A stretch of 64,000 nucleotides of DNA. Origin: Mytilus galloprovincialis. Taxonomy: Eukaryota; Mollusca; Bivalvia; Mytilida; Mytilidae. A program made the translations under genes and the position numbers. Position 1 is the stretch's first letter, and each line of letters opens with the position of its first letter. This document shows positions 28,304 to 60,820 of this stretch, in pieces. The notes under the pieces were generated by a model that ran no database searches, was not told where the DNA came from, and saw only the letters and a list, made by a program, of their open reading frames with translations. Location of the stretch: positions 75,789,410 through 75,853,409 of the forward strand of contig NC_134839.1 in assembly GCF_965363235.1 (NCBI RefSeq), in the 5' to 3' direction.

Positions 28304-29002
28304 GGAATTTAAGTTAATAGACTTAAATTCAGTTATCGCTGGGGCCACTCACGGATTGTGTTTCATGTTTTAGATTTACCCAACATGAGTGACGTTATAT
28401 TCTGTGACGTCATTTAGTCCTTTTTAGAATTTCATCGCAGCAAGCAAGCTGTTTAAATTTCGTAAGCGGTAAACTTGAAAACCCGCCCTCCCACTCCTTT
28501 TTATTGTACAAGATACTGCTCTTTTGTATTTATTTTTCAGGTTTGTGTCGGTGGCAGTGGTGATACAGATTTGACTGATGATGTTAACTTGTTTGCTGTT
28601 GAGAAAAGTGACTTATTTGAACTTTGAGCATCATAAATATATTCCCGTAAATGGCAGAATTCGCTGCATAGAATCTTAATGTTAACTATGAAATTTTAGG
28701 TTTTTGGATAATACAGACTACACTTGTGTATCCCACGGTGTTTTCTAAATTTAAAGCACCAGTGTATCCCACGGTGCATCTTTACATTTTCATATATATC
28801 TATCTATCTATCTATCTGGTTGCCATATTATCTTCGGGTAACCGACCATAGATCTATCTACATATACATATAAATCTATGGTCTATCTATCTATATATAT
28901 ATATATATTATATATTATATGAATCTATCATATTATGAATAAAAGCTGTGGCCAGATATCGCCAAACCATATATGTATTTTGTTTTAATGGCACCATCTG
29001 AG
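28304..29002 (-). mobile_element. Helitron-like element, short copy in tandem
   Basis: Shares both termini with the 6.2-kb element to its left (28304-28481 equals 22093-22270; 28652-29002 equals 27938-28298 apart from microsatellite length) and is joined to it through a single ATAAT. Between the shared ends are only about 170 private bases, which hold an exon-like fragment at 28541-28627. The outer right flank is ATAAT (29003-29007). Near-identity of the shared ends suggests that the tandem arose recently. Confidence 0.6.
28541..28627 (+). pseudogene. Terminal-exon-like fragment carried by the short Helitron-like copy
   Basis: A strong acceptor (TTTATTTTTCAG, ending 28540) is followed by 29 codons open in the frame starting VCVGGSGDTDLTDDVN and ending SDLFEL with a TGA at 28625-28627. 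The acidic, non-repetitive peptide and its junction look like the last exon of a cellular gene, captured by the element or belonging to an unseen plus-strand host gene. I do not recognise the protein. Confidence 0.4.
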
Positions 29003-29007
29003 ATAAT

Positions 29008-29408
29008 TAACCAAACGGTTGCGCTGTAGCATCCTGAAACTTATTCATAAAATAGCTGACTTTCTCTCGATACATTTGTTTGCCTAATGTCATCACTTGT
29101 TGCTTATCTATAGGACAATTAAACATAACTAAATAATGACAGTTTCAATTCTGAGTATGATCCTTGCTGTAATACAAATTTTGGTTAAGAACTACTACGG
29201 ATACATTCCTGTTGTGTCTCCTCCAGTACACAGATCGCGGTTATTCTCGGGTCTAAGGCTGCAGTAGACATCAGATCGTCCAAAATATTCAAGTTTTGTT
29301 CTGACGGGTCAAGAAAGTATCATTTTCCAAATCGACTGAATTGTACTCCTAGAAGAACTCGTTTTTTTTTCATTTCCTCATACAAACAAAGGCTGCCATC
29401 TACGAAAC
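29008..29408 (-). pseudogene. P-loop ATPase relic, middle segment (piece 2 of 3)
   Basis: The minus strand from 29408 downward reads, with several stops and frame changes, RWQPLF at the edge of the foldback insertion, then EQNLNILDDLMSTAALDPR (29300-29240; LNILDDLM is a Walker B-like strand with paired Asp). Then come a stretch matching a helical region and ATAxPFG-type sequence at about 29030-29010, where the next insertion begins. Piece 1 is at 40294-40713 and piece 3 at 21817-22092. Multiple stops mean that it was dead or has decayed since. Confidence 0.65.
29401..29408. repeat. 8-bp target-site duplication, left copy
   Basis: TACGAAAC immediately outside the left end of the foldback element; identical to 40294-40301. 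Confidence 0.9.
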
Positions 29409-29729
29409 GGCTATTGGTACTTTACGGAACGGAACGGAACGGAACGGAACGGAATTTCATTTAAGGTATCCAAAGGGGGCATTTATCAAAATTTCGAAAA
29501 ATCTTTAAAACAAAACAAACTTTAGAATTTCTGTGTTTTACGGTTTTCCATATACAAATAACACAAATGTATACTTAATCTCATCTTCACAGGTGAAATG
29601 TGTAATAATGTATAACATCGGGAAATATTCTGTAGATGAATATGTCGGATTGTTCTGATAAATTATCATGAAATTAACGCATTTGCAAGTCATGCATTAT
29701 GATATCTAGACTGACCTCACGTCGTCCTT

Positions 29730-32700
29730 GATTAGAGACAGTGATCAAAATGAATCTGATTTAAACTTTTTAATTTATTTTTCCGTTCCGTTCCGTTCCG
29801 CAAAGTACCAATTGCTCTGAGGAATTGGTATTTAACGGAAAAAACGGAAACAGACATCTTTAATGTAATTAAAGCAGTATGATAAAAAAAATTGTCTGAC
29901 ACCTCTTTTTGCATGAGTGGTATGTGTTTTAGATAGCATTTTCGACTTGATCAATAATAAAAAAATTAACACAAAGGCAGGTTACACAAACAGTCTTTCT
30001 CCTTCCATCGGTAATTATATTTTAAAAAAGGGGCATTCAACAGCCCGTTCCGACGATGATTAGAGACAGTGATCCAGTTGAATCTGATGTAAACTTTTTA
30101 ATTTATTTTTCCGTTCCGTTCCGTTCCGCAAAGTACCAATTGCTCTGAGGAATTGGTATTTAACGGAAAAAACGGAAACAGACATCTTTAATGTAATTAA
30201 AGCAGTATGATAAAAAAAAATTGTCTGACACCTCTTTTTGCATGAGTGGTATGTGTTTTAGATAGCATTTTCGACTTGATCAATAATAAAAAATTTAACA
30301 CAAAGGCAGGTTACACAAAAAGTCTTTCTCCTTCCATCGGTAATTATATTTTAAAAAAGAGGCCTTCAACAGCCCGTTCCGACGATGATTAGAGACAGTG
30401 ATCAAGTTGAATCTGATGTAAACTTTTTAATTTATTTTTCCGTTCCGTTCCGTTCCGCAAAGTACCAATTGCTCTGAGGAATTGGTATTTAACGGAAAAA
30501 ACGGAAACAGACATCTTTAATGTAATTAAAGCAGTATGATAAAAAAAAAAATTGTCTGACACCTCTTTTTGCATGAGTGGTATGTGTTTTAGATAGCATT
30601 TTCGACTTGATCAATAATAAAAAATTTAACACAAAGGCAGGTTACACAAAAAGTCTTTCTCCTTCCATCGGTAATTATATTTTAAAAAAGGGGCCTTCAA
30701 CAGCCCGTTGAGACAGTGATCCAGTTGAATCTGATGTAAACTTTTTAATTTATTTTTCCGTTCCGTTCCGTTCCGCAAAGTACCAATTGCTCTGAGGAAT
30801 TGGTATTTAACGGAAAAAACGGAAACAGACATCTTTAATGTAATTAAAGCAGTATGATAAAAAAAAAATGTCTGACACCTCTTTTTGCATGAGTGGTATG
30901 TGTTTTAGATAGCATTTTCGACTTGATCAAAAATAAAAAATTTAACACAAAGGCAGGTTACACAAAAAGTCTTTCTCCTTCCATCGGTAATTATATTTTA
31001 AAAAAGAGGCCTTCAACAGCCCGTTCCGACGATGATTAGAGACAGTGATCAAGTTGAATCTGATGTAAACTTTTTAATTTATTTTTCCGTTCCGTTCCGT
31101 TCCGCAAAGTACCAATTGCTCTGAGGAATTGGTATTTAACGGAAAAAACGGAAACAGACATCTTTAATGTAATTAAAGCAGTATGATAAAAAAAAAATTG
31201 TCTGACACCTCTTTTTGCATGAGTGGTATGTGTTTTAGATAGCATTTTCGACTTGATCAAAAATAAAAAATTTAACACAAAGGCAGGTTACACAAAAAGT
31301 CTTTCTCCTTCCATCGGTAATTATATTTTAAAAAAGAGGCCTTCAACAGCCCGTTCCGACGATGATTAGAGACAGTGATCAAGTTGAATCTGATGTAAAC
31401 TTTTTAATTTATTTTTCCGTTCCGTTCCGTTCCGCAAAGTACCAATTGCTCTGAGGAATTGGTATTTAACGGAAAAAACGGAAACAGACATCTTTAATGT
31501 AATTAAAGCAGTATGATAAAAAAAATTGTCTGACACCTCTTTTTGCATGAGTAGTATGTGTTTTAGATAGCATTTTCGACTTGATCAATAATAAAAAATT
31601 TAACACAAAGGCAGGTTACACAAAAAGTCTTTCTCCTTCCATCGGTAATTATATTTTAAAAAAGAGGCCTTCAACAGCCCGTTCCGACGATGATTAGAGA
31701 CAGTGATCAAGTTGAATCTGATGTAAACTTTTTAATTTATTTTTCCGTTCCGTTCCGTTCCGCAAAGTACCAATTGCTCTGAGGAATTGGTATTTAACGG
31801 AAAAAACGGAAACAGACATCTTTAATGTAATTAAAGCAGTATGATAAAAAAAAAATTGTCTGACACCTCTTTTTGCATGAGTGGTATGTGTTTTAGATAG
31901 CATTTTCGACTTGATCAATAATAAAAAATTTAACACAAAGGCAGGTTACACAAAAAGTCTTTCTCCTTCCATCGGTAATTATATTTTAAAAAAGGGGCCT
32001 TCAACAGCCCGTTGAGACAGTGATCCAGTTGAATCTGATGTAAACTTTTTAATTTATTTTTCCGTTCCGTTCCGTTCCGCAAAGTACCAATTGCTCTGAG
32101 GAATTGGTATTTAACGGAAAAAACGGAAACAGACATCTTTAATGTAATTAAAGCAGTATGATAAAAAAAAATGTCTGACACCTCTTTTTGCATGAGTGGT
32201 ATGTGTTTTAGATAGCATTTTCGACTTGATCAAAAATAAAAAATTTAACACAAAGGCAGGTTACACAAAAAGTCTTTCTCCTTCCATCGGTAATTATATT
32301 TTAAAAAAGAGGCCTTCAACAGCCCGTTCCGACGATGATTAGAGACGGTGATCAAGTTGAATCTGATGTAAACTTTTTAATTTATTTTTCCGTTCCGTTC
32401 CGTTCCGCAAAGTACCAATTGCTCTGAGGAATTGGTATTTAACGGAAAAAACGGAAACAGACATCTTTAATGTAATTAAAGCAGTATGATAAAAAAAAAA
32501 TTGTCTGACACCTCTTTTTACATGAGTGGTATGTGTTTTAGATAGCATTTTCGACTTGATCAAAAATAAAAAATTTAACACAAAGGCAGGTTACACAAAA
32601 AGTCTTTCTCCTTCCATCGGTAATTATATTTTAAAAAAGAGGCCTTCAACAGCCCGTTCCGACGATGATTAGAGACAGTGATCAAGTTGAATCTGATGTA

Positions 32701-33880
32701 AACTTTTTAATTTATTTTTCCGTTCCGTTCCGTTCCGCAAAGTACCAATTGCTCTGAGGAATTGGTATTTAACGGAAAAAACGGAAACAGACATCTTTAA
32801 TGTAATTAAAGCAGTATGATAAAAAAAATTGTCTGACACCTCTTTTTGCATGAGTAGTATGTGTTTTAGATAGCATTTTCGACTTGATCAATAATAAAAA
32901 ATTTAACACAAAGGCAGGTTACACAAAAAGTCTTTCTCCTTCCATCGGTAATTATATTTTAAAAAAGAGGCCTTCAACAGCCCGTTCCGACGATGATTAG
33001 AGACAGTGATCAAGTTGAATCTGATGTAAACTTTTTAATTTATTTTTCCGTTCCGTTCCGTTCCGCAAAGTACCAATTGCTCTGAGGAATTGGTATTTAA
33101 CGGAAAAAACGGAAACAGACATCTTTAATGTAATTAAAGCAGTATGATAAAAAAAAATTGTCTGACACCTCTTTTTGCACGAGTGGTATGTGTTTTAGAT
33201 AGCATTTTCGACTTGATCAATAATAAAAAATTTAACACAAAGGCAGGTTACACAAAAAGTCTTTCTCCTTCCATCGGTAATTATATTTTAAAAAAGAGGC
33301 CTTCAACAGCCCGTTCCGACGATGATTAGAGACAGTGATCAAGTTGAATCTGATGTAAACTTTTTAATTTATTTTTCCGTTCCGTTCCGTTCCGCAAAGT
33401 ACCAATTGCTCTGAGGAATTGGTATTTAACGGAAAAAACGGAAACAGACATCTTTAATGTAATTAAAGCAGTATGATAACAAAAAATTGTCTGACACCTC
33501 TTTTTGCGTGAGTGGTATGTGTTTTAGATAGCATTTTCGACTTGATCAATAATAAAAAATTTAAGGCAGGTTACACAAAAAGTCTTTCTCCTTCCATCGG
33601 TAATTATATTTTAAAAAAGGGGCCTTCAACAGCCCGTTCCGACGATGATTAGAGATAGTGATCCAGTTGAATCTGATGTAAACTTTTTAATTTATTTTTC
33701 CGTTCCGTTCCGTTCCGCAAAGTACCAATTGCTCTGAGGAATTGGTATTTAACGGAAAAAACGGAAACAGACATCTTTAATGTAATTAAAGCAGTATGAT
33801 AAAAACAAGTCAGACCCTTCTTTTTTGAATGAGTGGTAAGTGTTTTAGATAGCATTCCGACTTGATCAATATTTAAATAA
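29730..33880 (-). repeat. About 328-bp tandem array, left arm (13 monomers)
   Basis: Monomers begin ('gattagagacagtgatc') at about 29730, 30058, 30387, 30707, 31034, 31364, 31692, 32010, 32337, 32667, 32995, 33324 and 33647. Two (30707, 32010) share the same small deletion at their start, and neighbouring units repeat in pairs or blocks, so the array grew by block duplication. Each unit has a short minus-strand frame of 60-87 codons; it is conserved only because the DNA is, and contains frame-changing A-run lengths, so I do not call genes. The last unit decays into private sequence after about 33800. Confidence 0.9.
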
Positions 33881-34009
33881 ACAGCTGCGCCATGAGCGCA
33901 TGATACGCCCGTCGTCTTGTGAAAAAACATAAAAATCTTTTTTGAATAACACAGGGTTGTACAGGATGTCATGCTTAGTATATCCTGACTCATTCCTTAT
34001 TCCCGCTCA

Positions 34010-34505
34010 ATAGGAAGATTGTACAAGATGTATTTGGAAACCCGACGCAACATTAGCCTGTTAAGTTTTAAGCAATAGAGATACAGCGCAACATGTGAAA
34101 AACACCTCTTTTTTTTACAATAAACTCAGTAACTCGAAAATATAAAAATGAATCATCACCAAAAAGTATACAGATCTTTAGATTAATATAACTAAGAAGT
34201 ATTTAAAGTTTTAAGCCATAATCAAGAATCGTTTTTGAGATACGGTGCGACATGTGAAAAAAACACACCCCTGTTTTAGTTACAAAGTGCCGTAACTCAA
34301 AAAGTTGTAATCTTATTTTCACAAAAAAGTATACAGATCATTTTACCATCATAAGAAACAACTATGTTAAGTTTCATGAAATTTGGATAAGTCGTTCTCA
34401 AGTTACGGTGCGACATGTTTACACCGGACAGACGGACGGACGGACGGACGGACACTGGACATTTGTATACCATAATACGTCCCGTCAAATTTGACGGACG
34501 TATAA
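34010..34505. repeat. GACG-minisatellite repeat ending in a hairpin
   Basis: Two diverged internal repeats ('acggtgcgacatgt') are followed by (GACG)n at about 34427-34452 and a strong hairpin at 34476-34502 (TACGTCCCGTCAAA with TTTGACGGACGTA, one bulged C) just before TATAAAAAA. The same end plan, trinucleotide or tetranucleotide run then TACG..CGTATAAAA hairpin, recurs in repeats at 43.96, 53.22, 54.46 and 60.78 kb. Confidence 0.6.
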
Positions 34506-34509
34506 AAAA

Positions 34510-34860
34510 TAACACAAAGACAGGTTAGACAAAAGGTCTTTCTACTTCCATTGGTAATTATAAATTAAAAAAGGGGCCTTCCGAAGATGATTAGAAACAG
34601 TGATCAAGTTGAATCTGATTTCCGTTCCGTTCCGCAAAATACCAATTGCTATCATTTTCTGTAAAATGGTCCACTTACACGTTTTCAATTTCCGGATGTA
34701 CTCACTCATATTCGCGCTATGACAAAAGGGTTCAATCGTCCCAAGATACATAGTTTCGTCCCTGGATTTGTTCGCAACCTTTGTTAAAAATATTGATAAT
34801 TGTTGAATGGAAGATTTCTTAAAAAAAATCCGGGAGCTCATCAGGTAACGCCTGCCTAAT
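34510..34860 (-). repeat. Diverged outlying monomer of the foldback array
   Basis: Shares 'acaggttagacaaaaggtct', the 'ttccgttccgttccgcaaaa' block and 'taccaattgct' with the 328-bp monomers but is much more diverged. It is an older unit left in the central region. Confidence 0.6.
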
Positions 34861-35338
34861 ATCAATTACAAGATAGGCTGTGTCAATGTGCCATTTAGAG
34901 CCGTAGGCTGTGTCAATGTGCCATCTAGCACACATGTTGGGTCAAGTAGAATATATGGATTGTAGTTCAATTGGAAGAATAGAGTAGTAAATCAGTTAAT
35001 GTGTACATAAGTCGGTTATGTTGACAGGTCGACAGATTGCAAATTTGACAGATTGACAAGTCGAAAGGATTACAGGTTGACAGGTCGACAATTTGAAAGC
35101 TCCATTGGTTTAATTTTACAGAATGTTTTTTTTTTCCCAACTGCCAGCTGATTGATATTAAGTTGACGTTAATTTCACCTCCAAAAGTCGCCATATGAAC
35201 AATTCAACATTATGATATACAAAAACTGTTTAAACAGTGTTGAAGTCTGCGCCAACGTGCCATCTAGCCGTAGGCTGTGTCAAAGATTGATCTAGCACTG
35301 TAGGCCGAGTCAATGAGTGACCTCGTGTGCCGTATGGT

Positions 35339-35405
35339 TAGGGTATGGGTAAGGTTAAGGGTTAGGGTGATTTGAAGAGTTAGGGACAGTGTTAGGGTTC
35401 GGGTA
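35339..35405 (+). repeat. Degenerate TTAGGG-like interstitial repeat
   Basis: 'ttagggtatgggtaaggtta' followed by 'agggttagggtga' and scattered TTAGGG up to about 35405. It resembles the metazoan telomere repeat but is too short and imperfect to be more than an interstitial or chance tract. Confidence 0.4.
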
Positions 35406-35773
35406 TAATGCTATTGTTCTTCCTTTTAAATTGTCAACCATAGTAGTACATTTTGTAGTTTCAATTGCTAAAAAAGTAAGTAAATACTGTGAAAAATATA
35501 TTTTTCCTGATTCAAAGTAAGTCGTTATACGCTATATTTGATAACACTTTTACCTATTCGAATTTACAACCAGATACGAATGATATTTAAAAAGTTATCC
35601 CTTAATATGTGCTATGACTAGTATTTTTGTCATACTTGTATCTACATGGTGTGGTTTTCATTTCTACTATTATAATATAATTTTTAATATTATTCCTAAT
35701 CAACCACATTTTTATATTTCTAAAAACTATATTAGTTTAGAATATGCATAAGATATTTGCCACTGGAAGATAA

Positions 35774-36072
35774 GGCAGCAACCATTTGATTTTCTGGGGG
35801 GGGGGGGGGGGGGGGCTATGGTTTTTTTTGGAAAAAAAAGTTTGTTTCCAGGTTTTGGTGAAAAAAATAATTTGTTTTGGTCCCTGAGAAAAAAAAATTG
35901 TTTGTTTCACCCTCGGCTGCCACTATATGTAATGCTAAAATTGAAAGAAAACAAATGTTTTCGGTTTGTCGCTAAAAAAATAGATTGTTCTTCGCCGAAG
36001 GCGAAAAAAAAGTTTGCACAGAAAAAAAACCATAGGCCCCCCCCTCCCCCAGAAAATCAAATGGTTGCTGCC
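35774..36072. mobile_element. 299-bp Harbinger-like MITE
   Basis: TIRs start GGCAGCAACCATTTGATTTT at 35774 and end with its reverse complement at 36072. The two arms pair for about 40 bases including the poly(G)/poly(C) tract. TAA flanks both sides (35771-35773, 36073-36075), the 3-bp TWA duplication expected of PIF/Harbinger. The inside is T-rich on one side and A-rich on the other, so the whole element can fold. No coding capacity. Confidence 0.8.
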
Positions 36073-36234
36073 TAAGAAATTAACAAAATGTCTTGCAAAG
36101 AAAACTGTATATTTTTTATGAGGTGTCCTTATATAGTGTATTGGGTGTACAATATTTGGGTTTCGATGGATTGTTGTCTTGTTGGCGTCCATGGGGATGT
36201 TATAGCACTAAAAGTTTTGGAACGTTTTGGCGTT

Positions 36235-36395
36235 ATAAAATGGACACGTTTCGGCGGACGTTCTTCATCGGACACGTTTCGGCGAGATAAAAATTGGACA
36301 CTTTTGTGCGAAGGACAACATTGGACACGATACGGCGAAATGGACACGTTTTGGCGATCGGACACGTTTGGGGGGATGGACACGTTTGAGAGAGT

Positions 36396-36440
<45 letters not shown>
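36235..36440. repeat. GGACACGTTT minisatellite and (TA)n
   Basis: Seven to eight imperfect units around 'ggacacgtttcggcg' (about 36240-36390), then an (AT)n tract of about 40 bases (36399-36439). Frames containing Tyr-Ile runs are the microsatellite read through. Confidence 0.75.
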
Positions 36441-36443
<3 letters not shown>

Positions 36444-36975
36444 AGACTCAATATGAAAAGAATTTATTGTCATTGTTACAAGTGTGGACACAGATCTGTA
36501 TGGATAGTATATTAGAATAATCAGTGAAATGGCATTTGACAGTGTTAACCCCTATCTGTTATTTCTTATTTTTTCTCAAAAGGAATGGTTAAACTTCAGT
36601 CAAAAGTGACAGAAATACCAGATTCAGTACAATAAAAAATCAAAATGTGTGTGCACTGTTGGAGGGTAGTGATGTAAGAGAACAACAATGGCTAATTAAA
36701 AATGTGCTAGCGTAGGCAAATATGAAAATGAATATTCCAGCTCCATATTTTAGCACCAAATAGGCAACAAACATGTAGATGTTAATTCTTGCAGTTGTAT
36801 TTGAAATTTCAATGGCTAACTACCTTTATTATGCCTCATGAGGCCTAGGCATGCCCTTAATTGTTATTGTACCTTCATTAAATACCCAATCAATTATACA
36901 AAAAAAATACATACCAGCATGTTTCAGCTAACCCTAATTTGTAGTGCATACCCAGTGATTCCAGAATTTCTAATT

Positions 36976-37005
36976 GGGGGGGGGGGGGGCGGGGGGGGGG
37001 GGGGG
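36976..37005 (+). repeat. Poly(G) tract
   Basis: About 14 G, one C, then about 15 G. Potential quadruplex; likely length-unstable and prone to assembly error. Confidence 0.85.
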
Positions 37006-37690
37006 CATTGGCTGCGTAAGAGGTAGCCAGATCTAGTCATGCTTCCGTGATTCCCTAAATAATCAATACATTTGTCTTAGATTCCCTTCAGCTCTATTAA
37101 AGTCAGACTGGTTCCCTATAGCTAGTAGTTATTAGCTAAAAATGTTTGTATATAAATAAAATAATATTACCCACAACTTACCCTATTTTTCAGCATACCA
37201 GCGGAAATACATGTATTATTTCTTTTTGTCTTTTGAAATTTGCTATAAGTTGTGCTAGGGGCAGTCTTAAACATGTACATGTAGCTACATGTATTAAAGG
37301 TATATTTTAGGTTGTTTTAAAGCATTATAGTTTATTGTGACTTTTAAATTAATTTAAAGAAAAGCAATAAAAACATGGGTTCTACGTTTTTTTTTCTTTA
37401 AATGTTTTAAGTTGGTCCAAGGACATATATAGAGGGAGGATAACATCTTAACAATCCTTGATGTATTAAAAAAATATGTAGAGAATCATTGGAGAAACCA
37501 CACTGTACACCTTAAACCTTTAAAACTTGTTGATGGATTTTAATGGAATAAATATTTTCCTAAACTTAAATGATCCCCACATTTGTATTTCAAATATACA
37601 TTTGTATAATTTTGGGAAATTTCAGTCACTCAACAAATACTTGTTATCCTATATGCATATATATATATAAGTAAAAGGGTTATGGAGCGA
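37006..37690. other. Central foldback spacer, no gene
   Basis: AT-rich spacer between the poly(G) tract and the right arm array. No coding or repeat signal noticed. Confidence 0.4.
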
Positions 37691-37699
37691 AAAAGGTCC

Positions 37700-39967
37700 T
37701 TGACATGAGATATGTTTACCAAAAAAATAATTACCAATGAAAGAAGTAAGACTTTTTGTGTAACCTGCCTTTGTGTTAATTTTTTTATTACTGATCAAGT
37801 CGAAAATGCTATCTAAAACACATACCACTCATGCAAAAAGAGGTGTCAGACAATTTTTTTTATCATACTGCTTTAATTACATTAAAGATGTCTGTTTCCG
37901 TTTTTTCCGTTAAATACCAATTCCTCAGAGCAATTGGTACTTTGCGGAACGGAACGGAACGGAAAAATAAATTAAAAAGTTTAAATCAGATTCAACTTGA
38001 TCACTGTCTCTAATCATCGTCGGAACGGGCTGTTGAAGGCCTCTTTTTTAAAATATAATTACCGATGGAAGGAGAAAGACTTTTTGTGTAACCTGCCTTT
38101 GTGTTAAATTTTTTATTATTGATCAAGTCGAAAATGCTATCTAAAACACATACTACTCATGCAAAAAGAGGTGTCAGACAATTTTTTTTATCATACTGCT
38201 TTAATTACATTAAAGATGTCTGTTTCCGTTTTTTCCGTTAAATACCAATTCCTCAGAGCAATTGGTACTTTGCGGAACGGAACGGAACGGAAAAATAAAT
38301 TAAAAAGTTTACATCAGATTCAACTTGATCACTGTCTCTAATCATCGTCGGAACGGGCTGTTGAAGGCCTCTTTTTTAAAATATAATTACCGATGGAAGG
38401 AGAAAGACTTTTTGTGTAACCTGCCTTTGTGTTAAATTTTTTATTTTTGATCAAGTCGAAAATGCTATCTAAAACACATACCACTCATGCAAAAAGAGGT
38501 GTCAGACAAATTTTTTTATCATACTGCTTTAATTACATTAAAGATGTCTGTTTCCGTTTTTTCCGTTAAATACCAATTCCTCAGAGCAATTGGTACTTTG
38601 CGGAACGGAACGGAACGGAAAAATAAATTAAAAAGTTTACATCAGATTCAACTGGATCACTGTCTCTAATCATCGTCGGAACGGGCTGTTGAAGGCCCCT
38701 TTTTTAAAATATAATTACCGATGGAAGGAGAAAGACTTTTTGTGTAACCTGCCTTAAATTTTTTATTATTGATCAAGTCGAAAATGCTATCTAAAACACA
38801 TACCACTCATGCAAAAAGAGGTGTCAGACAATTTTTTTTTATCATACTGCTTTAATTACATTAAAGATGTCTGTTTCCGTTTTTTCCGTTAAATACCAAT
38901 TCCTCAGAGCAATTGGTACTTTGCGGAACGGAACGGAACGGAAAAATAAATTAAAAAGTTTACATCAGATTCAACTGGATCACTGTCTCTAATCATCGTC
39001 GGAACGGGCTGTTGAAGGCCCCTTTTTTAAAATATAATTACCGATGGAAGGAGAAAGACTTTTTGTGTAACCTGCCTTAAATTTTTTATTATTGATCAAG
39101 TCGAAAATGCTATCTAAAACACATACCACTCATGCAAAAAGAGGTGTCAGACAATTTTTTTTATCATACTGCTTTAATTACATTAAAGATGTCTGTTTCC
39201 CTTTTTTCCGTTAAATACCAATTCCTCAGAGCAATTGGTACTTTGCGGAACGGAACGGAACGGAAAAATAAATTAAAAAGTTTACATCAGATTCAACTGG
39301 ATCACTATCTCTAATCATCGTCGGAACGGGCTGTTGAAGGCCCCTTTTTTAAAATATAATTACCGATGGAAGGAGAAAGACTTTTTGTGTAACCTGCCTT
39401 AAATTTTTTATTATTGATCAAGTCGAAAATGCTATCTAAAACACATACCACTCACGCAAATGAGGTGTCAGACAATTTTTTGTTATCATACTGCTTTAAT
39501 TACATTAAAGATGTCTGTTTCCGTTTTTTCCGTTAAATACCAATTCCTCAGAGCAATTGGTACTTTGCGGAACGGAACGGAACGGAAAAACAAATTAAAA
39601 AGTTTACATCAGATTCAACTTGATCACTGTCTCTAATCATCGTCGGAACGGGCTGTTGAAGGCCTCTTTTTTAAAATATAATTACCGATGGAAGGAGAAA
39701 TACTTTTTGTGTAACCTGCCTTTGTGTTAAATTTTTTATTATTGATCAAGTCGAAAATGCTATCTAAAACACATACCACTCGTGCAAAAAGAGGTGTCAG
39801 ACAATTTTTTTTTATCATACTGCTTTAATTACATTAAAGATGTCTGTTTCCGTTTTTTCCGTTAAATACCAATTCCTCAGAGCAATTGGTACTTTGCGGA
39901 ACGGAACGGAACGGAAAAATAAATTAAAAAGTTTAAATCAGATTCATTTTGATCACTGTCTCTAATC
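37700..39967 (+). repeat. About 328-bp tandem array, right arm (7 monomers)
   Basis: Same monomer as 29730-33880 in opposite orientation, with units closing ('ctaatcatcg') near 38020, 38350, 38675, 39000, 39320 and 39645 and the outer domain starting at about 39968. Three adjacent units share a deletion ('ctgccttaaattttttatta', lacking 'tgtgtt'), again showing block duplication. Outermost units of both arms share a variant (AAATCAGATTCA.TTTGATC type), so arm edges match each other better than the middle. Confidence 0.9.
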
Positions 39968-40293
39968 AAGGACGACGTGAGGTCAGTCTAGATATCATAA
40001 TGCATGACTTGCAAATGCGTTAATTTCATGATAATTTATCAGAACAATCCGACATATTCATCTACAGAATATTTCCCGATGTTATACATTATTACACATT
40101 TCACCTGTGAAGATGAGATTAAGTATACATTTGTGTTATTTGTATATGGAAAACCGTAAAACACAGAAATTCTAAAGTTTGTTTTGTTTTAAAGATTTTT
40201 CGAAATTTTGATAAATGCCCCCTTTGGATACCTTAAATTCCGTTCCGTTCCGTTCCGTTCCGTTCCGTTCCGTTCCGTAAAGTACCAATAGCC

Positions 40294-40301
40294 TACGAAA
40301 C
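40294..40301. repeat. 8-bp target-site duplication, right copy
   Basis: TACGAAAC directly after the right terminus; identical to 29401-29408. In the ATPase frame these bases code for part of the peptide shared by both flanks. Confidence 0.9.
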
Positions 40302-40713
40302 AACCATATAATTCTATGTGGTTTTGTTGAAACATGGTCTAAATTTTGACTTATTTTTTTAAATACTTCTTCCCACAAAAAGTTGCGCCAGTCACCGTCA
40401 TTGTAAATGGATGTTGAAAAGTAAACCGGTCCTGATATTTTTGTTCACTGCATGGCCTTGACTGTGACGATCGTTCTAGTGGTATGTGCGACGGAGGCGG
40501 CGGTGATGGGATAACTTCCTTCTGTGGTAGCGTCGGCGGTGGATATACTTCAGTGGTCTGCGGATATGCATTTCTGATTTTCCTCATCAACACATCTTTT
40601 CTTGAAAACTTCATTTCACAAATAGGACAATAATTTTTATCCATATTCGCACATGTAAGATTGTTGTGAAATGAACAAAATTTCCGAGATTTTATATAGT
40701 CTTTTAAATGCAT
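40294..40713 (-). pseudogene. Zinc-finger/P-loop ATPase relic, N-terminal segment (piece 1 of 3)
   Basis: A minus-strand frame of 120 codons from 40713. C29-P-I-C32 starts a C2H2-type finger, but the two expected His are K45 and Y50, so the finger is broken. A Pro-rich linker (PPPTLPQKEVIPSPPPPSH) follows, then FTFQHPFTMTVTGATFCGKK, a P-loop with Lys where Ser/Thr of GxxxxGK[S/T] should be. A one-base shift gives SQNLDHVSTKPHRIIWLFR, which stops at the foldback insertion (40293). This order (finger, P-loop, RIIWL) fits ATPases found with polymerase B genes in self-synthesising elements of invertebrates; the packaging-ATPase identity is an inference. It lies divergently beside the polymerase relic, 190 bases away. 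Confidence 0.65.
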
Positions 40714-40904
40714 TCTGGGAAATAAAATAAAGAATAAAATAATGATGTATATTCTAGATAAATCTAGTGTACTCTGATATCGTTTTTTTAAGTTGCATTA
40801 TGGGTAATATGAGCATATGTAAACCTATAAATTGTTTTCTTTTTAATAGATACTCATTCACTTGTGAACCACCAACAAGGAAAGATGGAAAGTAAAGTAC
40901 ATGT

Positions 40905-53639: not shown

Positions 53640-54485
53640 CAACTTGTCTTTCAATTTTGGACCCTTTGGACCTTAATGTAGACCAATTTGAAAACGGGAC
53701 CAAAACTTAAGAATCTACATACACAGTTAGATTCGGTATATCAAAAAACCCCAATTATTCAATTTTTGATGAAATCAAACAAAGTTCAATTTTGGACCCT
53801 TTGGGCCCCTTATTCCTAAACTATTGGGACCAAAACTCTCAAAATCAAACTCAACCTTCCTTTTATGGTCATAAACCTTGTGTTTAAATTTCATAGATTT
53901 CTATTTACTTATAATAAAGTTATGGTGCAAAAAACCAAGAATAATGCTTATTTGAGCCCCTTTTTGGCCCCTAATTCCTAAACTGTTGGGACCTCAACTC
54001 CCAAAATCAATCCAAACCTTCCTTTTGTGGTCATAAACCTTGTTTTTACATTTCATTGATTTCTATTTACTTATACTAAAGTTATTGTGCGAAAACCAAG
54101 AATAATGCTTATTTGGGCCCTTTTTTGGCCCCTAATTCCTAAACTGTTGGAACCAAACATCCCAAAATCAATCCCAACCTTCCTTTTGTGGTCATAAACC
54201 TTGTGTTAAAATTTCATAGATTTCTATTTACTTGAACTAAAGTTATAGTGCGAAAACCAAGAAAATGCTTATTTGGGCCCTTTTTGGCCCCTAATTCCTA
54301 AAACTCCCAAAATCAATCCCAACCTTCCTTTTGTGGTCATAAACCTTGTGTTAAAATTTCATAGATTTCTATTCACTTTTACTAAAGTTAGAGTGCGAAA
54401 ACTAAAAGTATTCGGACGAAGACGACGCAGACGACGACGCCAACATCATACCAATATACGACCATTTTTGCAGTCGTATAAAAAC
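53640..54485 (+). repeat. Hairpin-ended repeat with 160-bp internal tandem units
   Basis: 'ttattcctaaactattgg' and its relatives recur at about 53811, 53971, 54131 and 54290, giving a 160-bp period. A (GAC)n tract at about 54415-54440 and the hairpin TATACGAC/GTCGTATA (54455-54480) end the element. The CAGGTGCTCC end is missing or lies in a separate fragment. Confidence 0.75.
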
Positions 54486-59459: not shown

Positions 59460-60820
59460 ATTGCTATTGCACAATATTGTGCAATTTAATAGATATTTCT
59501 TGCTATTGTGCAATACTGTGCAATTGAAAATTTCTTGCTATTGCACAATACTTGATATGGAATCCTGATTTGGACCAACTTGAAAACTGGGCCCATAATC
59601 AAAAATCAAAGTACATATTTAGATAAAGCATATCAAATAAGCCCAAGAATTTAATTTTTGTTAAAATCAAACTTAGTTTAATTTTGGACCCTTTGGACCT
59701 TAATGTAGACCAATTTGAAAACTGGACCAAAAATTAAGAATCTACATACACAGTTAGATTTGGCATATCAAAGAACCCATTTATTCAATTTTTGATGAAA
59801 TCAAACAAAGTTTAATTTTGGACCCCCATTTGGACCAACTTGAAAACTAGGCCAATAATTAAAAATCTAAGTACATTTTTAAATTCAGCATATCAAAGAA
59901 CCCCAAGGATTCAATTTTTGTTAAAATCAAACTAAGTTTAATTTTGGACCCTTTGGATCTTAATGTAGACCAATTTGAAAACGGGACCAAAATTTAAGAA
60001 TCTACATACATAGTTAGATTCGGCATATCAAAGAACCCCAATTATTCAATTTTTGATGAAATCACACAAAGTTCAATTTTGGACCCTTTGGGCCCCTTAT
60101 TCCTAAACTGTAAGGACCAAAACTTCCAAAATCAAACCCAACCTTCCTTTTATGGTCATAAACCTTGTGTTTAAATTTCATAGATTTCTATTTACTTATA
60201 CTAAAGTTATGGTGCAAAAACCAAAAATAATGCTTATTTGGGCCCCTTTTTGGCCCCTAGTTCATAAACTGTTGTGACCTCAACTCCAAAAATCAATCCC
60301 AACCTTCCTTTTGTGGTCATAAACCTTGTGTTAAAATTTCATTGATTTCTATTTACTTAAACTAAAGTTATTGTGCGAAAACCAAGAATAATGCTTATTT
60401 GGGCCCTTTTTTGGCCCCTAATTCCTAAACTGTTGGAACCAAAACTCCCAAAATCAATCCCAACCTTTCTTTTGTGGTCATAAACCTTATGTCAAAATTT
60501 CATAGATTTCTATTTACTTAAACTAAAGTTATAGTGCGAAAACCAAGAAAATGCTTATTTGGGCCCTTTTTGGCCCCCAATTCCTAAAATGTTGGGACTA
60601 AAACTCCCAAAATCAATCCCAACCTTCCTTTAGTGGTCATAAACCTTGTCTTAAAATTTCATAGATTTCTATTCACTTTTACTAAAGTTAGAGTGCGAAA
60701 ACTAAAAGTATTCGGACGACGACGACGACGCCGCCGACGCCGATGACGACGCAGACGACGACGCCAACGTGATAGCAATATACGACGAAAAATTTTTCAA
60801 ATTTTGCGGTCGTATAAAAA
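59460..60820 (+). repeat. Hairpin-ended repeat with about 115- and 160-bp tandem units
   Basis: First part (59570-60060): units around 'ttttggaccctttggacctt' with about 115-120 bp spacing. Second part: 160-bp units ('ttcctaaactgt' at about 60099, 60258, 60421, 60580). Then a long GACGACGACGCCGCCGACG tract (60716-60765) and the hairpin TATACGAC/GTCGTATA (60779-60816). At the start TTGCACAATATTGTGCAA-type palindromes recur three times. The Asp- or Val-rich frames over the tract are not genes. Confidence 0.75.

What the first reader, a model, noticed from the sequence alone, without database searches (positions are those of the whole stretch)
29401..40301. 10.9-kb foldback transposon with tandem-array arms and an exact 8-bp target duplication
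TACGAAAC sits directly outside both ends of an inverted structure whose arms are arrays of 13 and 7 about 328-bp monomers. The array is internal to the arm: an about 320-bp unique cap lies between each terminus and its array. Foldback-type arms of satellite-like units are known in Drosophila FB, but an element of this size in a mollusc, with caps, unequal arms and a 3.8-kb cargo of other repeats, may be undescribed. Seen: ends, duplication, arrays. Inferred: transposition as one unit.
Basis: partly seen in the sequence, partly recalled or inferred. Interest (0 to 1): 0.88.

Follow-up and report, generated by a model that had tools for sequence, protein, structure and literature searches.

The report
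Young foldback transposon family with arrays
The 10.9-kb structure is one copy of a jumping-DNA family found dozens of times in this genome; it moves as a whole although no transposase gene was recognised in it, it jumped recently, and it appears to have flipped one large chromosome segment.

Summary
Window 29409-40293 has matching inverted ends, an exact TACGAAAC duplication, 321/326-bp caps, arms of 12.7 and 6.9 units of 328 bp, and a 3.85-kb core. The held genome (1.38 Gb) contains 172 exact copies of the 22-bp terminus. Of 72 neighbouring left-right end pairs, 63 have an exact 8-bp (39) or 9-bp (24) target duplication; sizes are 1.4-63 kb, median 11.1 kb. Two copies on C5, 770 kb apart, are both exactly 11,137 bp, match in 6,000 of 6,000 sampled bases, and have different duplications and flanks, so the whole unit moves. 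The array units hold a palindromic pair of terminus-like motifs. Two copies on C6 have reciprocally exchanged duplications, the mark of a 254-kb inversion by recombination between copies (misassembly not excluded). No transposase was recognised in the open frames scanned; no MULE, P, Merlin or hAT hit that was scored and checked falls between paired ends. It is best read as a non-autonomous foldback-type TIR transposon family of unknown superfamily, in a species not verified here (the large contigs fit a mussel). The architecture parallels Tetris of Drosophila virilis. The paper listings searched show no bivalve foldback family. New member of a known kind.

The parts
29401..29408 (+). left target-site duplication TACGAAAC
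29409..29729 (+). left cap: terminal motif, ACGGA tract (29424-29454), then flanking domain
   Evidence: 35 caps from the sampled copies differ by 0.57% between elements
29729..33871 (+). left array, 12.7 units of 328 bp; the unit holds a palindromic pair of terminus-like motifs
33872..37721 (.). core without recognised coding capacity; about 33901-34650 is an inner domain shared with the main core types, and most of the core is shared with L022 (C2:31618516) at 96-97%
   Evidence: all 18 open frames of at least 55 aa scanned, no Pfam hit above a curated cut-off
37722..39968 (-). right array, 6.9 units of 328 bp, inverted relative to the left one
39968..40293 (-). right cap, ending in the inverted terminus
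40294..40301 (+). right target-site duplication TACGAAAC

Best explanation
The structure is one copy of a young, non-autonomous foldback-type DNA transposon family with terminal inverted repeats. Shown: a fixed 22-bp terminus, a cap of about 320 bp, an array of 0-21 units of 328 bp per arm in the sampled copies, and a variable core are inserted as one block with an 8- or 9-bp target duplication at dozens of sites. Inferred: a transposase made elsewhere binds the terminal motif and excises and inserts the block. The arrays multiply that motif (two inverted copies per unit) and so may act as extra binding sites. Array length changes by unequal exchange between near-identical units, and arms of different copies recombine, which can invert the DNA between two insertions.
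For: 172 exact 22-bp termini (84 forward, 88 reverse), with 0 matches to the reversed control patterns. 63 of 72 neighbouring +/- pairs have exact 8-bp (39) or 9-bp (24) duplications, and the 41 compared are all different. Twin copies C5:61368737 and C5:62139179 are both 11,137 bp, 6,000 of 6,000 sampled bases are identical, and flanks and duplications differ. The unit holds a 33/35 copy of the terminus, and 173 of 202 full units hold an exact 37-bp form of the motif pair. Arm lengths vary from copy to copy. Units differ by 1.45% within arms, 1.50% between the arms of one element and 1.79% between elements. No transposase domain in the 18 window-core frames, the 8 type-A core frames or the 10 frames of at least 130 aa listed. 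0 of 140 MULE, 51 P, 48 Merlin and 141 hAT hits lie inside paired ends. Reciprocal duplications on C6.
Against: 9 of 72 pairs lack an exact duplication: by eye, 3 differ by one base or one indel, 2 are the C6 pair, and 4 are unexplained. 28 ends are unpaired. No transposase was identified, so mobilisation in trans is by elimination, and 46 of the 72 paired interiors were not read. The motif pair is not specially conserved: 69 of 282 equal-length stretches of the unit vary less, so its role as binding sites is an analogy with Galileo. One sampled copy (L026) shows no right cap, and L024 has a shortened left cap.
Confidence: 0.9

Rival explanations
1. Two unlinked or successive insertions, or a chance palindrome formed by inverted duplication of a satellite array, flanked by a chance 8-bp repeat.
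For: Arms are unequal, and satellites can be inverted by rearrangement.
Against: 63 of 72 end pairs show exact 8-9-bp duplications, and the 41 compared are all different. Twin copies whose sampled interiors are identical lie at two sites.
Confidence: 0.02
2. A satellite-bearing Helitron-type element, like the pearl/HINE elements known in bivalves.
For: Bivalve Helitron-like non-autonomous elements carry tandem arrays (PMC7492417, passages read).
Against: The family has long inverted arms and 8-9-bp target duplications. Helitrons insert without target duplication (recalled).
Confidence: 0.02
3. A self-mobile element whose transposase lies in copies not read here, in a superfamily that I did not test (for example KDZ) or in a form split by introns.
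For: 46 of the 72 paired interiors were not read and 6 more only sampled. Only four transposase families were searched, and for MULE and hAT only 150 of 324 and 150 of 638 candidates were scored. Copies with changed termini were not sought.
Against: 0 of 380 transposase hits checked lie between paired ends. The open frames scanned from the copies read gave reverse transcriptase in three and a kinase in one, and no transposase.
Confidence: 0.25
4. The C6 reciprocal duplications are an assembly error that flipped a segment between two repeats, not a natural inversion.
For: Both breakpoints lie in repeats, and only one assembly was seen.
Against: One of the two copies is only 803 bp, short enough for long reads to cross (inference), and the two fetched loci contain no N.
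Confidence: 0.25

Closest known systems
Tetris / DAIBAM of the Drosophila virilis group (PMC4079207; abstract, Results section on characterisation and part 1 of 2 of the Discussion read)
   Same: External flanking domain, then an internal array of about 220-bp units, inner domain and variable middle; a 37-bp stretch (about 80%) shared by flanking domain and unit; 8-10-bp duplications; no transposase found; relatives at inversion breakpoints.
   Different: Unit of 328 bp, its sequence not compared with Tetris; arms up to about 7 kb against 1.7 kb; 63 copies with exact duplications against 3 complete copies; very little divergence between copies.
Galileo, P superfamily, Drosophila (PMC3688188; abstract and outline read)
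   Same: Long internally repetitive inverted repeats whose tandem repeats carry further transposase-binding sites; generator of inversions.
   Different: None of 51 P-type transposase hits lies inside a paired copy; duplication 8-9 bp here, 7 bp in Galileo (recalled).
Tm1 Mutator/Foldback family of root-knot nematodes (PMC3169594; abstract, outline and passages read)
   Same: [quoted passage not shown] 8-10-bp, mostly 9-bp, duplications.
   Different: Units of 13-15 bp; some copies encode a Phantom-type transposase; none found here.
Drosophila FB (recalled)
   Same: Inverted arms made of tandem units.
   Different: Short units; 9-bp duplications.

Membership tests
Foldback-type elements (structural class) | Long inverted arms containing tandem repeats, variable in length | tested here: met
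Foldback-type elements (structural class) | Precise ends with target-site duplication at many sites | tested here: met
   63 of 72 pairs
Foldback-type elements (structural class) | Movement as one unit | tested here: met
   C5 twins: equal length, 6,000 of 6,000 sampled bases identical, different flanks
Mutator superfamily | 8-11-bp target duplication (range recalled) | tested here: met
   39 of 8 bp and 24 of 9 bp; not specific to Mutator
Mutator superfamily | MULE transposase between the ends of some copy | tested here: inconclusive
   0 of 140 PF10551 hits inside 72 pairs, but only 150 of 324 candidates were scored
P superfamily (Galileo) | P-type transposase between the ends of some copy | tested here: not met
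   0 of 51 PF21787 hits inside 72 pairs; all 76 candidates were scored; copies with changed ends not tested
Merlin superfamily | IS1595-type transposase between the ends of some copy | tested here: not met
   0 of 48 PF12762 hits inside 72 pairs; all 63 candidates were scored; copies with changed ends not tested
hAT superfamily | hAT dimerisation domain between the ends of some copy | tested here: inconclusive
   0 of 141 hits on C1-C14 inside pairs; 9 further hits lie on small contigs that hold no listed end; only 150 of 638 candidates were scored
KDZ superfamily | KDZ transposase | not tested
   No search made

The most novel reading that the evidence does not exclude
A foldback transposon family active now or until very recently in a bivalve multiplies its own transposase-recognition motif as array units inside both arms. 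It carries nested elements and gene pieces, breeds new satellite arrays in its middle (an identical 1,291-bp unit in samples spread over about 35 kb of a 53-kb copy), and reshapes chromosomes by recombination between copies, including a 254-kb inversion.
Probability: 0.5. Interest if true: 0.75.

Novelty: new member of a known kind. Interest (0 to 1): 0.6.

Why it matters
In the foldback paper read most closely, only three structurally complete copies were found (Tetris). Here 63 copies with exact duplications, nearly identical sequence and arrays of 0-21 units form a natural series for asking how arm arrays grow, whether they raise transposition, and how foldback copies cause inversions and seed satellites.

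Tried and rejected
Tried without result. (1) The autonomous partner: four transposase families were searched over the genome (MULE, P, Merlin, hAT), with no checked hit inside a paired copy. (2) The 19.9-kb copy C3:12740924 looked at first like a virus-like autonomous element: it encodes pieces with DNA_pol_B_2 and rve plus chromodomain matches above cut-off, and an ATPase whose Pox_A32 match is below cut-off. It is a nested Polinton-type insertion (my reading): five other copies (L015, L017, L020, L021, L026) hold the uninterrupted site, the two sides overlapping by 7 bp. (3) The giant copies were suspected of carrying host DNA or a transposase. In the 52.8-kb copy, 4 of 5 interior samples are an identical 1,291-bp tandem unit and the fifth is type-A core. 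In the 46.5-kb copy, 3 of 4 samples are arrays of a different 345-bp unit. The 63-kb copy was sampled at four places without a clear answer. (4) Special conservation of the motif in the units: not found. (5) Interchromosomal exchange: among 46 ends without their own partner, only the C6 ends pair up; one C5 and one C13 end share the same ten flanking bases. (6) The number of units in the genome and the copy number of the window core by DNA search did not complete.

Full report
Observation. The window holds an inverted structure at 29409-40293 with matching ends and an exact TACGAAAC on both outer sides. Tandem Repeats Finder gives 12.7 and 6.9 copies of a 328-bp unit at 29729-33871 and 37722-39968. 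Stretches of up to 664 nt are 100% complementary between the arms. The caps are 321 and 326 bp; they differ in the pentamer tract and the bases next to it and are identical inward of that. One addition: the unit contains TTCCG...CAAAGTACCAATTGC TCTGAG GAATTGGTATTTAACGG, a palindromic pair of terminus-like motifs, the better one 33/35 identical to the terminus. An exact 37-bp form of the pair is present in 173 of 202 full units.

Family. The window lies at C2:75789410-75853409 of a 1.38-Gb genome. The large contigs seen, C1 to C14, fit a mussel with 14 chromosomes (recalled); the tool does not name the species, so this is not verified. A cap search gave 40 scored hits of 194 candidates, 96-100% identical. 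An exact 26-bp terminus pattern gave 84 forward and 87 reverse places, and the reversed control gave 0 and 0. Patterns with ten flanking bases listed 172 exact 22-bp ends, 78 and 94 in two halves. Pairing neighbouring + and - ends within 70 kb gave 72 pairs and 28 single ends. Exact duplications are present in 63 pairs: 39 of 8 bp and 24 of 9 bp. Of the 9 others, three are by eye one base or one indel from a duplication (C2:63595070, C7:3429853, C12:33230134), two belong to the C6 case below, and four are unexplained (C7:6665942, C9:37686419, C10:34301683, C12:28428423). In 41 matched pairs read with longer flanks, all duplications differ and are A+T-rich in the middle; dealing right flanks out anew gives a mean of 1.0 matches, the self-pairing expectation. 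The 63 copies range from 1,405 to 63,271 bp, median 11,137, and sum to 817 kb.

Movement as one unit. C5:61368737-61379873 and C5:62139179-62150315 are both 11,137 bp. They have different duplications (CCGTAAAAT and ATTTATGG), and their 60-bp flanks look unrelated. Sampled stretches of 6,000 bases out of 11,137 have no mismatch. The element, arrays included, was copied very recently. Units differ by 1.8% between elements.

Anatomy across copies. In 20 sampled copies or partial copies, arms hold from 0 to 21 units, and left and right counts usually differ; L026 shows no right cap and L024 a shortened left one (four of the 20 are cut by the end of the fetched stretch, and L023 was entered uncut). 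Unit divergence within an arm (1.45%, 878 pairs) and between the arms of one element (1.50%, 663 pairs) is almost equal, and both are below that between elements (1.79%, 18,760 pairs). The differences are small, and for 85 of 202 units the nearest relative lies only in another element, so how units spread stays open. Core types: type A (L018, L016, L027, L012, L028), type B with a reverse-transcriptase piece in several (L015, L017, L020, L021, L026; RVT_1 E = 5.7e-11, 3.1e-11 and 4.6e-9 in L020, L017 and L026), and the window type (window, L022). The types share an inner domain of about 0.9 kb.

Coding capacity. All 18 open frames of at least 55 aa of the window core and all 8 of the type-A core of L018 were scanned against Pfam, with no hit above a curated cut-off. 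All 10 frames of at least 130 aa in L009-L028 and window 29001-40800 were scanned as well: three are reverse transcriptase, one is a protein kinase, six have no hit. The kinase piece (PF00069, E = 5.1e-23) lies in copy C11:54599838, duplication TGATGTCT, perhaps a captured gene piece; its donor was not sought. The 19.9-kb copy C3:12740924 contains a nested Polinton-type provirus. No MULE (0 of 140), P (0 of 51), Merlin (0 of 48) or hAT (0 of 141 checked) hit lies inside a pair; 20 of the 72 paired interiors were read wholly or mostly, 6 were sampled, 46 were not read. The family is therefore best read as non-autonomous. Since transposition is recent, a transposase supplied in trans is inferred. 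The superfamily is open: 8-9-bp duplications fit several.

Rearrangement. C6:1977673-1987039 has flanks GTGCACAA (left) and TAAATGAC (right). C6:2240858-2241660 has TTGTGCAC (left) and GTCATTTA (right). The two left flanks are reverse complements of each other, and so are the two right flanks: exactly what results if two insertions, each with its own duplication, recombine and invert the 254 kb between them. Among 46 ends without a partner of their own, these are the only two matches of this kind. Neither fetched locus contains N. Misassembly cannot be excluded. On C1 a right end with 60 bp of identical flank occurs twice, 9.9 kb apart, a local duplication.

Comparison. Tetris of D. virilis has the same order of parts, a shared 37-bp stretch between flanking domain and unit, 8-10-bp duplications and inversion-linked relatives (PMC4079207; abstract and sections read). 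The tandem repeats of Galileo carry further transposase-binding sites (PMC3688188; abstract). Tm1 combines variable tandem arms with a Mutator-type transposase in some copies (PMC3169594; abstract and passages). Searches of the held papers for foldback with Mytilus (4 papers, all listed), bivalve and related terms (15 of 34 listed) or mussel (4, all listed) returned no title or abstract start describing such a family; passages of PMC7492417 and PMC10294476 were read. Subscription papers and repeat libraries were not searched.

Verdict. The observation and the transposition reading are right. The element is a new member of the foldback kind, with unusually good evidence of recent movement and a probable inversion. 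Which transposase moves it is unknown.

Noticed in passing
G000 C4:92129623-92182442 (L097-L100): A 52.8-kb copy with exact duplication GAAATGAC holds a tandem 1,291-bp unit, 100% identical in 4 of 5 interior samples (over 32 kb; the fifth, L096, is core); another exact match lies at 92177870-92179870.
   Followed up: partly
G000 C9:1448547-1495067 (L109, L110, L112): A 46.5-kb copy (duplication GAAATTTC) contains arrays of a different 345-bp unit, inverted between L109 and L112, perhaps a second foldback family nested in it.
   Followed up: partly
G000 C3:12740924-12760862 (L101, L103, L104): A Polinton-type provirus with integrase, PolB and ATPase-like genes is nested in a foldback copy; five other copies show the empty site with a 7-bp overlap.
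   Followed up: partly
L028:9025-9672: Open protein-kinase piece inside a copy with duplication TGATGTCT, possibly a captured gene fragment.
   Followed up: no
window 29028-29216 and 40354-40797, - strand: The element may sit in a decayed packaging-ATPase-like gene: the left flank matches the ATPase of L101 (29% of 65 aa, E = 4e-5 in a search of the two flanks); the right-flank open frame has no Pfam or tblastn match and only a P-loop-like stretch seen by eye.
   Followed up: partly
G000 C1:106121931 and 106131830: The same right end with 60 bp of identical flank occurs twice, 9.9 kb apart: a local duplication beside a foldback copy.
   Followed up: no
G000 C5:91628076 (+) and C13:49336229 (-): Two unpaired ends on different chromosomes share the same ten flanking bases.
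   Followed up: no
window 53791-54402 and 60078-60702: Arrays of the same 161-bp unit (GGGCCCTTTTTGGCCCCTAATTCC...) occur twice, 6 kb apart, and a relative occurs in L114.
   Followed up: no
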